DNA of 64,000 nucleotides from Sycon ciliatum. Its lineage: Eukaryota > Porifera > Calcarea > Leucosolenida > Sycettidae. The notes beneath the pieces are model-generated. The model was not told the origin of the DNA. It worked only from the letters and a program-made list of their open reading frames with translations, and made no database searches. Below are positions 48,138-62,511 of this stretch, in pieces. How positions within the stretch are numbered: the first letter of the stretch is position 1; each line of letters starts with the position of its first letter. The DNA is taken from assembly GCF_964019385.1 (NCBI RefSeq), contig NC_088645.1, positions 27,943,034-28,007,033 of the forward strand, in the 5' to 3' direction. The translations under genes were made by a program, and so were the position numbers.

Positions 48138-48160
48138 AATAATAATAATAATAATAATTA
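48138..48160. repeat. (AAT)n tract at palindrome junction
   Basis: AATAATAATAATAATAAT lies between the Penelope palindrome and the large palindrome. Comparable tracts lie at 44557-44570, 44770-44783, 62480-62510 and 63560-63590. Confidence 0.9.
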
Positions 48161-48371
48161 AAAAGCTTACGTGGAGATAAAAATGTAATCAACGCAATAA
48201 ATAGAGTAAGCTGCGCACTCAGTACAAACACCATTAGCAAAACTTGTTTTCATGTAAATAATTAAGCTTGTTCCTAAACGTTTTCGTCGCCATCTCATCA
48301 GAGGATTACTGGCAAATCAAAACTAGCTCTAAACTCAATATATATACGCACAATGCAAGTAGTAATTTAGA
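48161..48371 (+). repeat. Large palindrome, outermost left arm segment
   Basis: Reverse complement of 62290-62475: AAACGTTTTCGTCGCCATCT, GCAAATCAAAACTAGCTCTA and TATATATACGCACAATGCAA are shared. It precedes a Penelope-like fragment and may be that element's 5' or terminal region. Confidence 0.85.
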
Positions 48372-48590
48372 CGGGTGTATGAATCTTCTGTTGCAAACCA
48401 TCTTGTTCAGAATAGTGATTGTCGTTCTAGTTATACTGATGATTGCTTTTCTGTTTGGTCTCGTTCACGTAGTCAAAGGTATCTGCGTGTATTGGAGTCT
48501 ATCTACATTTTTACTACCAAGCCGATTTTGTGTAGGCAGAAAAAGAATTTGTTTACGTTGAAATTGTTTGTGAATTTAGATCAGTAGTTC
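48372..48590 (+). pseudogene. Penelope-like element C-terminal fragment, divergent
   Basis: The plus frame from 48375 reads SSVANHLVQ, CFSVWSRSR, LRVLES and KPILCRQKK...LFTLKLF, aligning residue by residue with the C-terminal block of the palindromic Penelope copies (SSVYNHLV, CFSVLCRAR, LEAVC, KPNLC, LKLF). About half the residues match, so this is another family member. No catalytic part is present. Confidence 0.75.
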
Positions 48591-48639
48591 TCGTTTGTGG
48601 TGCATGGTTACTTTCTAGTGGTGAATTTATCCAAGAGTA

Positions 48640-50400
48640 CATGAAAACCAGAGTGTGCAGCTTGGGGCCTTTTCTGCTATGGGTGTCTGTCACGGCGAAA
48701 TTCCGTGATTACATCATATTTGGCCCAGATCTGAGGCGAGAAATGGCGTAGTGCGTACAACTGAGCTGCAGTTGTGCGGAAAGGCGAAAGGCTAAAGGGA
48801 CAAGCTTATCTATTTTTGCGGATTTTCTTTCATAAAAAATAAACGTCACAGGCTGCTCTTCGGAGGTGTCCGCGTCCCAGCGGTCCGGGCAAGCGACCGA
48901 ATCTCAGTGGGACACTTGGCCGTGGCCTTTGTACTGGAATCTGTGGGAGAGCCTTTCCAGGGACTACACACTTTGTGTACCCGGGTATCGGGTATGGCTC
49001 CTTTTTTGTTCCTTTCCTTTTTATTTGTTTTTGCTGAGAAAGAAACGTTGCTGGATGGAAAGCTTTCTGTTCCCGCCATGCGCCAGCGCCTTTGCTCTAG
49101 TAAAACATTGCTGGCTGATAATGGTCATTGCTCGTGATGTCAACTTAGAAGGTGACGGGAAGCTGGGTTTCTTGCCATTTCCAACTTCCTGACTCTGAAA
49201 ATGTAGCTTGAACTAAGAGCTCCAAATATTTCAGTTTTTCGATGTGCCAGACCTATTGTTACGACCTGCAGAGATGAGGAGCAAGTCAGGCGTTGGATTA
49301 ATGCCAATAATGGTGTTTATGGCCCGGACGACGCCAGCGGTTTTCACTTGTCAGGAGGACAGCCGAGTTGGAGCAGGCAGATGACAGATTATTAACTTTG
49401 AGCATTTATAGCCGAGTGGGTGGCTTGCCAAAGAGAATCGTCTCAGTTCCTCATGGTTACTAGTATCTGACAAATGCCTCTTATTGCTAGTCTGCACTAG
49501 AGCATTAGCAGAATTGATCATGTCACAAGTAGTGTCAAGACTTGATGTCCTACGATTATACTCAGATCATGTTGCTACTTCACAGGAATATTCGTCCTGC
49601 CACTGTACACTCTTCCAGAGTTGCATGCAGAAGTCACATGCCTGTCACAGTGTGCAAGGGACAACGCGTTTGCACTGCTTACGGATTCAAGCGGATGGAG
49701 TGCAGGCCCGATAAGAAGACATAATCCGTCTATTCAAATAGCTTGGGCTGCTATTAATTGGCTAGACTCCTGGAAACATGGACAAGAATCTAAACCAGTC
49801 CACGGAAACAATATCACGCCACACAGGAAGCTAAATGGCAAACCAATCAAGTTCTTTGGTAATGAAGCCGTTCACCAACATTGTCCGGTTGCATGGCTAG
49901 TGTCACTCAAACAGGACCAATGGACCTAAAAGATACGCTGTTGATCAACCACAACTCCAATACCACTGAGCAGTGTCTTCTATACAGATCCAATTAGATA
50001 TTCAAGTATATGAGTGGAAGTTGCTGGTATAGTCTCTCCTAATGACCGCGTATTTGGCATAATGTTCTCTATACTGCACTCTAGAGCTACTTACCTTTTC
50101 CGGCATTGAACTCAGGCAGGGACCACTCGCCTGCAGAATGAGCCAATTGACACAGAAGCTAAGTACCATGTGCATCCGTCGCAAGAGAAACACGCAAGTC
50201 TGCAAGTGAAGTGGATGGACACCCACTGATTTTCTCTTATGCCGATATCAGACATGACCTGAGTGAAACGTATGAAGACTTGCACCACATTACTGCACAA
50301 TTCCATATAATTATTGCGAGGCCTTGTGAAATGATTCTCAATGCACACCTGGTCTACGCCACACAGAATACATCGGATTATAATCGCCAATACAGCTGCC
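48640..50400 (+). mobile_element. Palindrome unit I, left copy (unclassified element)
   Basis: Repeated in reverse complement at 60150-62225 and, more diverged, as unit II at 53080-54650 and 54786-56022. Two peptide segments stay readable in all copies: RRWINANNG.YGPD.AS..FHLS (here 49255-49390) and DNAFALLTD.SGWS (here about 49660-49700), followed by PHRKLNGKPIKFFGNE. The first vaguely recalls the C-terminal half of THAP-type zinc domains (W...P..S..H...G.PS) but lacks the Cys. No transposase is recognised. Probably a decayed mobile element with long inverted ends. Confidence 0.6.
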
Positions 50401-60149: not shown

Positions 60150-61789
60150 CAGCTGTCTTGGTCGTTATCATCCGATGTATTCCGTGTGGCGTAGACCAGG
60201 TGTGCATTGAGAATCCTTTCACAAGGCATCGCAATAACTATAATTACGGAATTGGGCAGTAATGCGGTGCTAGTCTTGATATGTTTCACTCAGGTCATGT
60301 CTGATATCGTTGGCATAAGAGAAAATCAGTGGGTGTACATCCACTGCACTTGCAAACTTGCGTGTCTCTCTTGCGACGAATGCACATGGTACTTGGTGTC
60401 TGTGTCAATTGGCTCACTCTGTGGGCGAGTGGTCACTGCCTGAGTTCAATGTCGGAAAAGGTAAGTAGCTCTAGAGTGCAGTATAGAGGAAATTATGCCA
60501 AATACGCGGTCATTAGGAGAGACTATACCAGCAACTTCGACTCATATACTTCAATATCTAATTGGATCTGTATAGAAGACGCTGCTCAGTGGTATGGAGT
60601 TGTGGTTGATCAACAGCGTATCTTTTAGGTACATGTGGCATCCATTGGTCTTGTGTGAGTGACACTAGGCATGCAACCGGACAACGTTGGTGAAAGGTTT
60701 CATTACCAAAGAACTTGATTGGTTTGCCATTTAGCTTCCTGTGTGGCGTCACATCGTTTCCGTGGACTGGTTTAGATTCTTGCCCACGTTTCCAGGAGTC
60801 CAGCCAATTAATAGCAGCCGAAGCTATTTGAATAGCCAGATTATGTCTTCTTATCTGCTCTGCACTCCATCCGCTTGCATCAGTTAGCAATGCAAACACG
60901 TTGTCCCCTGCACAGGCACGTGACTTCTGCAGGGAATTCCGAGAGAGCGTAAAGTGGCAGGACGAATTACCGTGAAGTTGCCACATGATCTGAGTACAAT
61001 CGTAGCACATCAAGTCTTGACACTACTAGTACTTGTGACATGATCAATTCTGCTATGCTCTAATGCAGACTGCCAATAAGAGGCATTTGTCAGATACTAG
61101 TAACCATGAGGTACTGAGATGATTCTCTTCGGCAAGCCACCCACTCTGCAAAAAAATGCGCCAAAATTAATAATCTGTCATCTGCCTGCTCCAACTTGAC
61201 TGTCCTCCTGACAAGTGAAAACCGCTGGCGTTGTCCGGCCATAAACACCATTATTGGCATCAATCCAACGCCTTCGTTGCTCCTCATCTCTGCAGCTCAT
61301 ACCAATAGGTCTGGCACGTCGAAAAACTAAAATACTCGGAGCTACAAGCTACATTTTCAGAGACAGGGAGTTGCAAATGGCAAGAAACCCAGCTTCCCTT
61401 CACCTTTGGCATCACGAGCAATGACCACTCATCAGCCAGCAATGTTTTACTAGAGCAAAGGCGCTGGCGCCATGGCCATGGCATGGCGGGAACAGAAACA
61501 GCAACGTTTCTTTCTCAGCAAAAACAAATAAAAAGGAAAGGAACAAAAAAGGATCAACACCAGGGATTCGTCCATACCCGGTACCCAGGCCAGGTGTGTA
61601 CTACCCCTGGAAAGGCTCTCCCACAGATTGCAGTACAAAAGCCACGGCCAAGTGTCCCACTGAGGTGCGGTCGCTTGCCCGGACCGCTGGGCCGCGGACA
61701 CCTACGAAGAGCAGCCTGTGACGTTTATTTTTTTATGACAGAAAATCCGCAAAAATAGTTGGGCTTGTCCCTTTAGCCTTTCGCCCCGG
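60150..61789 (-). mobile_element. Palindrome unit I, right copy
   Basis: Reverse complement of 48780-50395. The minus-strand frame 61013-60558 is the best-preserved coding stretch of the family: SRACAGDNVFALLTDASGWS, then INWLDSWKRGQESKPVHGND and PHRKLNGKPIKFFGNE. The RRWI.ANNGVYG segment is frameshifted by one lost C near 61230. Confidence 0.65.
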
Positions 61790-62095
61790 GAGCAGGGTTG
61801 ACTGGATCCATCGGATCCAAATGTGACCTTTGTGCGTATATGGTGGGTAAAAATCATTTTTATGCTCATTGTCGTACGTCTAGTGGACTTTTGTTGACTT
61901 TTCGTACGACGCGGGCGATCAGTACGACTTGTGCCTTTTGGCGAGGGTGACCTGTCAGCGCCATTTTTTACTTCGTCAACATGGCAACAGCCAAGGTCCG
62001 CAAAAAAGTGTTCGGTTGATTCTGAAGGATCCGACGGATCTGAGATTTGGATCTGGATCTGGATCCGACCAAACGATCATAGCCTAAGTCCTACC
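61790..62095. mobile_element. GGATCC-rich MITE, long version
   Basis: Shares its ends with the palindrome-centre element (CCCGGGAGCAGGGTTG at the left; GGATCCGACCAAACGATCAT at the right). AGCCT flanks it on both sides (about 61777 and 62082). Absent from the equivalent place in the left arm near 48785. Confidence 0.65.
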
Positions 62096-62479
62096 CTGCG
62101 GAAAGAGACCTGCTTGAATCCTGCTTGTACGCACTACATCACTAAAATGATGTAATCACGGAATTTCGCCGTGACAGCAACCCATCCGAGCTGCACACTC
62201 TGGTTTTCATGTACTCTTGATTTATCGCATCTGTTGTCACCTGATATCGTTGATTGATGTAATGTTTTTTCAGCTCTCATTTTCTCGCGCTAGTTAGGGT
62301 CTAAATGACTACTTGCATTGTGCGTATATATATTGAGTTTAGAGCTAGTTTTGATTTGCCAGTAATCCTCTGATGAGATGGCGACGAAAACGTTTAGGAA
62401 CAAGCTTAGTTATTTACATGAAAACAAGTTTTGCTAATGGTGTTTGTACTGAGTGCGCAGCTTACTCTATTTATTGCGT
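62096..62479 (-). repeat. Large palindrome, outermost right arm segment
   Basis: Mirrors 48161-48371 and 48640-48720 (GATGTAATCACGGAATTTCG, CACTCTGGTTTTCATGTACT) but lacks the Penelope-like fragment found between them in the left arm. Confidence 0.85.
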
Positions 62480-62511
62480 TGAATAATAATAATAATAATA
62501 ATAATAATAAT
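62480..62511. repeat. (AAT)n tract
   Basis: About ten AAT repeats at the outer edge of the palindrome. Confidence 0.95.

What the first reader, a model, noticed from the sequence alone, without database searches (positions are those of the whole stretch)
48140..62510. ~14-kb nested palindrome of an unclassified element: I> <II | II> <I
Directly visible: unit I (48.6-50.4 kb) recurs inverted at 60.15-62.2 kb, unit II (53.1-54.65 kb) recurs inverted at 54.8-56.0 kb, and I and II are themselves diverged homologues. The arms also mirror CT/AG and CA/TG tracts. So each arm looks like an element with long inverted ends, and two such elements sit head to head. Known fold-back elements and palindromic amplicons share parts of this layout, but I recognise no named family. 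Arm divergence rules out a simple assembly echo.
Basis: seen in the sequence. Interest (0 to 1): 0.85.

Follow-up and report, generated by a model that had tools for sequence, protein, structure and literature searches.

The report
Nested jumping-gene insertions forming a palindrome
The 14-kb palindrome is not one strange element but a stack of ordinary insertions: a six-kilobase "foldback" jumping gene landed in older repeats, and a second copy then landed inside it in the opposite direction; I could not match the family to a named one, and the very ends of its copies seem to be favoured landing sites for other repeats.

Summary
In detail: inverted pairs 48783-50577/61785-59966 (87%) and 53804-55623 (79%) make a palindrome at 48186-62485. 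The interpretation as one palindromic element is not. Each arm is a copy of one dispersed DNA-transposon family: left tip GCGAAAGG, right tip CCTACCC, terminal inverted repeats of about 1.1 kb that differ by 11-20% within a copy, 9-bp target duplications (11 of 16 copies by script, 0 of 240 mismatched controls). Of 91 left tips in the genome 52 have an inward right-tip partner, none an outward one; the window is the only left-left pair. Duplications and empty sites give the order: repeat P, then M, then copy A (48784-62096), then repeat R in A's right tip, then copy B (54778-61784, reversed) in R. The palindrome is a one-off product of nesting. I found no transposase in the copies; 9-bp duplications, long ends and a right tip identical to the Tm1 motif CCTACCC point to a non-autonomous foldback Mutator-like family, but the partner enzyme was not found. 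Unexpected: 4 of 18 right tips carry other repeats inside the 22-bp tip, far above the rate in the bodies.

The parts
48186..48631 (+). left part of outer repeat P (187-bp terminal inverted repeat at 48186-48372)
   Evidence: 98.4% inverted match to 62485-62299; 86 match rows, 40 of 1,818 candidates scored
48632..48783 (+). left part of repeat M (CAAGAG...CTCTTG), in P, flanked by 7-bp duplication ATTTATC (48625-48631 / 62220-62226)
   Evidence: junctions; P without M 145 of 145 identical to L031, equal scores in L032 and L033, slightly lower in L030
48775..48783 (+). 9-bp target duplication TGCGGAAAG of copy A, left
48784..62096 (+). copy A of the foldback family, with everything nested in it; left tip GCGAAAGG, right tip CCTACCC at 62090-62096
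   Evidence: tips located; empty site = uninterrupted M in L015
48792..49847 (+). left terminal inverted repeat of A (unit I)
50644..52548 (+). non-coding middle of A: CT/CA microsatellites and a 158-bp tandem repeat
   Evidence: frames there are low-complexity
53206..54646 (-). right terminal inverted repeat of A (unit II)
53402..53797 (.). 396 bp not shared by the other copies compared, inside A's right repeat; its ends look like a small inverted-repeat insertion
54648..54777 (+). left part of repeat R in A's right tip (42-bp inverted ends with 62048-62089); exact ends uncertain
54769..54777 (+). 9-bp target duplication CCCGGGAGC of copy B, left
54778..61784 (-). copy B, a second subfamily, reversed; right-type tip at 54778, left-type tip at 61784, 7,007 bp
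   Evidence: empty site = uninterrupted R in L009
54786..55899 (+). right terminal inverted repeat of B (unit II')
56022..56663 (+). piece that reads like the 3' end of a LINE (label recalled), carried by B and by its relative L040
   Evidence: unshared with the copies; L040 97.7% over 2,083 columns; Pfam gave only a sub-threshold C2H2 finger
56874..57481 (.). 608 bp not shared by the copies compared, nature unknown
57573..59143 (-). non-coding microsatellite middle of B
60632..61776 (-). left terminal inverted repeat of B (unit I')
61785..61793 (+). 9-bp target duplication CCCGGGAGC of B, right
61785..62089 (+). right part of repeat R
62097..62105 (+). 9-bp target duplication TGCGGAAAG of A, right
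62106..62219 (+). right part of repeat M
62220..62485 (-). right part of outer repeat P

Best explanation
The palindrome is a stack of independent insertions. Repeat P received the small repeat M (7-bp duplication); copy A of a ~6-kb foldback DNA transposon landed in M (9-bp duplication); repeat R landed in A's right tip; copy B of the same family, in the opposite direction, landed in R (9-bp duplication). Two inverted-repeat elements in opposite directions read as I> <II | II> <I. The family is non-autonomous: its ~1.1-kb ends enclose microsatellites, and it is presumably cut and pasted by a Mutator-type (MULE) transposase acting in trans on the tips. Shown: tips, duplications, dispersal, and the nesting of M in P, A in M and B in R. 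Inferred: that R arrived by insertion in A's tip, cut-and-paste transposition, and the transposase class.
For: Identical 9-bp duplications around A and B. Empty sites: flanks of B joined match L009 over about 425 bp with one CCCGGGAGC; flanks of A joined match L015 over 267 bp with one copy of the target (one mismatch in it); P without M matches L031 at 145 of 145. R is a common repeat: 40 of 602 candidates were scored, and 37 match rows show its inverted end on the other side, about 70-80 bp away in the rows I inspected, where the window has 7 kb. Family: 103 right and 91 left tips, reversed-pattern controls 0; with the 100 listed right tips, 52 of 91 left tips have an inward partner within 20 kb (median about 6.2 kb), 0 an outward one. 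Of 20 fetched copies 16 had both tips found by script; 11 of these share at least 9 bp at the flanks, two more (L015, L016) by eye; mismatched flanks share 8 or more in 0 of 240. Right tip equals Tm1 motif A2, CCTACCC (PMC3169594, passages and first part of the discussion).
Against: No transposase found in the copies: tblastn with a FLYWCH+MULE protein of this genome gave nothing (best E 1.6); none of 41 PF10551 hits lies within 61 kb of 191 listed tips; of 114 PF20700 hits (801 candidates, so most were not scored) the nearest is 678 bp outside a copy. R shows no clean target duplication at A's tip. L018, L020 and L026 lack duplications; L013, L025, L027, L028 were not testable by script. 39 of 91 left tips have no partner, and C10 has a left and a right tip in the same direction within 20 kb. 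The Tm1 left motif (CGGTTAA) is not shared.
Confidence: 0.93

Rival explanations
1. The 14-kb palindrome is itself one mobile element, or a palindromic amplicon made by inverted duplication.
For: Nested symmetry over 14 kb and a 98%-identical outer pair.
Against: Inner copy B has its own target duplication and empty site; A and B carry the sub-tips of two subfamilies (TTAT, CCAA) and their left units are 87% alike; the outer pair is the terminal repeat of P, which occurs elsewhere uninterrupted at M's site; the window is the only left-left pair among 91 left tips.
Confidence: 0.02
2. The family is a foldback element of another superfamily (for example Merlin-like, 8-9-bp duplications, recalled), not Mutator.
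For: No transposase was found between the tips; long inverted ends occur in several superfamilies, e.g. Galileo harbours a P-element transposase (PMC3169594, discussion).
Against: Regular 9-bp duplications, ends of about 1 kb, and short unequal tips outside the repeat with CCTACCC as in Tm1.
Confidence: 0.2
3. Assembly artefact.
For: Inverted repeats are error-prone in assembly (general knowledge).
Against: The main arm pairs differ by 13-21%; the insertions of M, A and B carry target duplications; the components recur uninterrupted elsewhere.
Confidence: 0.02

Closest known systems
Tm1 (Meloidogyne), Phantom-type Mutator/foldback family, PMC3169594 (passages, first part of discussion)
   Same: mostly 9-bp duplications; inverted ends; short unequal tip motifs outside the repeats; motif A2 CCTACCC identical to the right tip here; mostly non-autonomous
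   Different: Tm1 ends are built largely of ~14-bp tandem repeats and its left motif is CGGTTAA; here the ends are ~1.1 kb and the tandem arrays of the window copies lie in the middle; no transposase-bearing copy was found
Tetris (Drosophila virilis) foldback, PMC4079207 (passages)
   Same: non-autonomous foldback, 8-10-bp duplications, assigned to Mutator without a known transposase
   Different: different host; tandem TIR-220 repeats in its ends (sequences were not compared)
Phantom/Muta MULEs, PMC5225508 and PMC6446971 (passages)
   Same: long ends and 8-10-bp duplications; this genome has FLYWCH+MULE proteins (L037, L038)
   Different: those two genes are flanked by arrays of another short repeat and no matching tip was seen; the elements' exact ends were not settled
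[quoted passage not shown]
   Same: a mobile element found in another element's tip, as in the tip observation
   Different: bacterial, related insertion sequences with one target; here several unrelated repeats

Membership tests
Mutator-like elements (MULE) | MULE (DDE) transposase in the element or in a copy with the same tips | tested here: inconclusive
   none seen in the copies read; 41 PF10551 hits, none within 61 kb of 191 listed tips; 114 PF20700 hits scored of 801 candidates, nearest 678 bp outside a copy; of 10 tip pairs wider than 8 kb only part of one (L025) was read
Mutator-like elements (MULE) | terminal inverted repeats over 100 bp | tested here: met
   11 fetched copies and B: about 0.65-1.15 kb at 80-89%
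Mutator-like elements (MULE) | 8-11-bp target duplication | tested here: met
   11 of 16 copies by script, 0 of 240 controls
Tm1-like Phantom foldbacks | unequal short tips outside the repeat, CCTACCC on one side | tested here: met
   GCGAAAGG / CCTACCC; the repeat starts at base 9 on both sides in 12 of 13 measured, window A's right end being split
Tm1-like Phantom foldbacks | left motif CGGTTAA or CGGATAA | tested here: not met
   left tip is GCGAAAGG
classical foldback elements | terminal repeats composed of short tandem repeats | tested here: not met
   in the window copies the tandem arrays lie between the ends, not in them; other copies not tested

The most novel reading that the evidence does not exclude
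The tips of this foldback family are landing pads for unrelated DNA repeats. At least four different ones (R, M, a CAGGGAGTCG repeat with an 8-bp GRCTAAAG duplication, an AGCGGGATTCAC repeat) interrupt the same ~20 bp, and some tips carry scars that look like excision footprints. Either the tips are an exposed or recognised target, or copies silenced by tip insertion can no longer excise and so survive longest.
Probability: 0.35. Interest if true: 0.55.

Novelty: new member of a known kind. Interest (0 to 1): 0.33.

Why it matters
It removes a supposed new class of palindromic element and shows how nested insertion of foldback transposons writes large near-palindromes, which tend to be unstable (general knowledge) and are easily misread as amplicons. 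It describes a well-preserved foldback family with unequal tips like those of Tm1; whether it is already named could not be tested, since no repeat library was on hand. If the tip hotspot holds, it would allow a direct test of whether transposon ends attract other transposons or whether tip-broken copies simply persist.

Tried and rejected
Pack-MULE capture: L018/L020 carry a polyubiquitin-like fragment (label recalled), but it lies in a 1.8-kb insert with 349-bp direct repeats TGTA...TACA and a ~4-bp duplication, so it looks like a small LTR-type insertion, not gene capture by this family. The wide tip pair at L025 holds, in the part read, an LTR-retrotransposon frame and no transposase of this family. 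Linking two FLYWCH+MULE genes (L037, L038) to these tips failed. A PF20700 gene beside L023 belongs to another, very uniform element into which the copy inserted; that element's end was not resolved. Failed scripts: file name; rerun; time limit; rerun with other BLAST settings as 93.

The tip statistic was devised after seeing cases. Body inserts were called as stretches of about 80 bp or more not shared by other independent copies, so inserts shared between copies are missed; L025, L028 and copy B were left out; one of the four body inserts (L023) is of lowish complexity; L013, L019 and L027, whose tips are altered, were counted as without insert. Doubling the body inserts to 8 gives 9.8e-8.
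Full report
OBSERVATION. Unit I (48783-50577) recurs inverted at 61785-59966 at 87%; units II and II' face each other across about 54.7 kb; I and II are 85% alike over 0.85 kb; the outermost inverted pair is 48186-48372/62485-62299 at 98.4%. The arms' best inverted score is 2242 bits against at most 30 in 20 shuffles. The window lies in an unnamed 538-Mb genome of 313 contigs, a eukaryote by its size and contents.

THE ARM IS A REPEAT FAMILY. Unit I gave 53 match rows in the genome, a lower bound (40 of 2,642 candidates scored); of the 18 best outside the window, 16 begin at query 180-185, i.e. 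at window 48779-48784, and 14 are 97-99% identical. I fetched 20 copies. Eighteen of the 20 also carry a unit II-like end in inverted direction, the whole being 4.6-7.7 kb; in L025 and L028 it did not show in the stretch fetched. The tips recur: left GCGAAAGGCTAAAGGGACAAGC, right GCTTGTCCCTTTAGTCCTACCC. The script found both tips in 16 of 20 copies; 11 of the 16 are flanked by an identical stretch of 9-10 bp, while mismatched flanks share 8 or more in 0 of 240 comparisons (6 share 6-7). L015 and L016 also have it when the M insertion or lost left bases are allowed for; L018, L020 and L026 do not. Left and right ends of one copy differ by 11-20% in the 11 fetched copies and B that were measured, while left units of the best copies are 97-99% alike, so the difference between I and II is an old family trait rather than decay after insertion.

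GENOME-WIDE ANATOMY. The shared tip core gives 120 forward and 107 reverse matches, the right tip 103 and the left tip 91, against 0 for each reversed control. With the 91 left tips and the 100 listed right tips, 52 left tips have a right-tip partner facing inward within 20 kb (2.4-17.4 kb, median about 6.2 kb), none an outward one; 39 have no partner. One right tip on C14 serves two left tips. The only inward left-left pair is the window; there is one right-right pair on C4, and a same-direction left/right pair in the window and on C10. Listed core matches fall in two sequences, TTAT (copy A) and CCAA (copy B).

THE NESTING. Copy B (54778-61784) is flanked by CCCGGGAGC on both sides. Joining its flanks gives a sequence that aligns over about 425 bp to an uninterrupted repeat R in L009 with a single CCCGGGAGC. 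R is abundant: 40 of 602 candidates were scored, and 37 match rows show its inverted end, about 70-80 bp away in the rows I inspected, where the window has 7 kb. R lies between CTTGT and CCTACCC of copy A's right tip. After that tip comes TGCGGAAAG, which also precedes A's left tip; joining these flanks gives the uninterrupted repeat M, found in L015 over 267 bp with one mismatch in the target. M is flanked by ATTTATC and sits in P; P without M is identical over 145 of 145 bases to L031, with equal scores in L032 and L033 and a slightly lower one in L030. In many other copies the inner part of P lies in the other direction relative to its end, so P is variable. The order is P, M, A, R, B. R's insertion has no clean duplication and is the weakest step. 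B also holds a LINE-like piece (recalled label), which its relative L040 shares (97.7% over 2,083 columns), and 608 bp of unknown nature.

MECHANISM AND CLASS. I found no coding capacity for a transposase in the copies: frames listed, nine window frames against Pfam, and tblastn with one MULE protein against the window and 20 copies. They are most likely moved in trans by a transposase binding the tips. The 9-bp duplications, ~1-kb ends and short unequal tips outside the repeats match Mutator-like elements, and the right tip CCTACCC is the same as motif A2 of Tm1, a Phantom-type foldback family (PMC3169594; passages and first part of the discussion). The genome does encode FLYWCH+MULE proteins (L037, L038), but without matching tips, and none of 41 PF10551 hits lies within 61 kb of a listed tip. 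PF20700 proteins are abundant (114 scored of 801 candidates); the nearest scored one lies 678 bp outside copy L023, which inserted into that element. The class is therefore a reasoned assignment, not a demonstrated one.

TIP HOTSPOT. Foreign repeats lie within the 22-bp right tip in 4 of 18 independent copies: window A (R), L015 (M), L018/L020 (a CAGGGAGTCG repeat, one event in a duplicated segment), L022 (an AGCGGGATTCAC repeat). Four inserts were found in about 105 kb of the same bodies; the chance probability is 1.4e-8, 9.8e-8 with twice as many body inserts, and 9e-7 without the window copy. The copies were chosen through the left unit, so the right tip was not selected. L041's left tip is split by a CAGGGAGTCG repeat with duplication GGCTAAAG, the whole being flanked by GAGTTGCCC. 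Of 100 listed core matches 9 lack the outer tip: three are in L018, L020 and L027, already fetched, and I read the other six. L042 and L047 carry short extra stretches between repeated CTAA(AG), like excision scars; L045 shares a 22-bp foreign flank with L026; L043 has a small CAGGGAGTCG palindrome next to the tip; L046 joins unrelated sequence; L044 is merely a diverged right tip. The statistic is post hoc and small. Insertion of one element in another's tip is known in bacteria (IS5075 in Tn21-like ends; PMC8269217 passages). One keyword search on transposons inserting in the inverted ends of others listed 7 papers, none on this as far as title and start of abstract show; that is not proof of absence.

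VERDICT. The finding is real but composite and, in the tips listed, one-off. What it adds is a member of a known kind, a foldback family with ends like Mutator-type elements, plus a tip pattern that deserves a proper survey.

Noticed in passing
44780-48117: A second, near-perfect palindrome (99.3% arms, 188-bp centre) with frames reading outward that look like a Penelope-type endonuclease region (recalled; Pfam found no family in the one frame scanned); its ends abut AAT-rich tracts, as do the ends of P.
   Followed up: partly
L018/L020 (C3:38.75 and 38.73 Mb): A pair with shared flanks (segmental duplication) carrying a 1.8-kb LTR-type small insert with 349-bp direct repeats and a polyubiquitin-like fragment.
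   Followed up: partly
G000, 114 scored PF20700 places, e.g. C2:32709216: A very uniform PF20700 (Mutator) transposase family: dozens of places with the same score and a 628-residue frame; a 434-bp stretch beside one copy is shown as 100% (rounded) in all 40 scored places, itself included. Looks like a recent burst.
   Followed up: partly
C2:18.50-18.74 Mb and C3:19.43-19.68 Mb: Right tips of this family recur 4 times at 73-80-kb steps on C2 and 5 times at 35-119-kb steps on C3, suggesting large tandem duplications.
   Followed up: no
26186-41525: Long stretches of strongly strand-biased, GT-rich tandem repeats (GC skew up to 0.8) with many overlapping direct repeats.
   Followed up: no
L041 (C4:29661300-29668300): A deletion derivative of the B subfamily of about 2.5 kb, almost only its two inverted ends, with a ~248-bp unit in several tandem copies further along.
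   Followed up: partly
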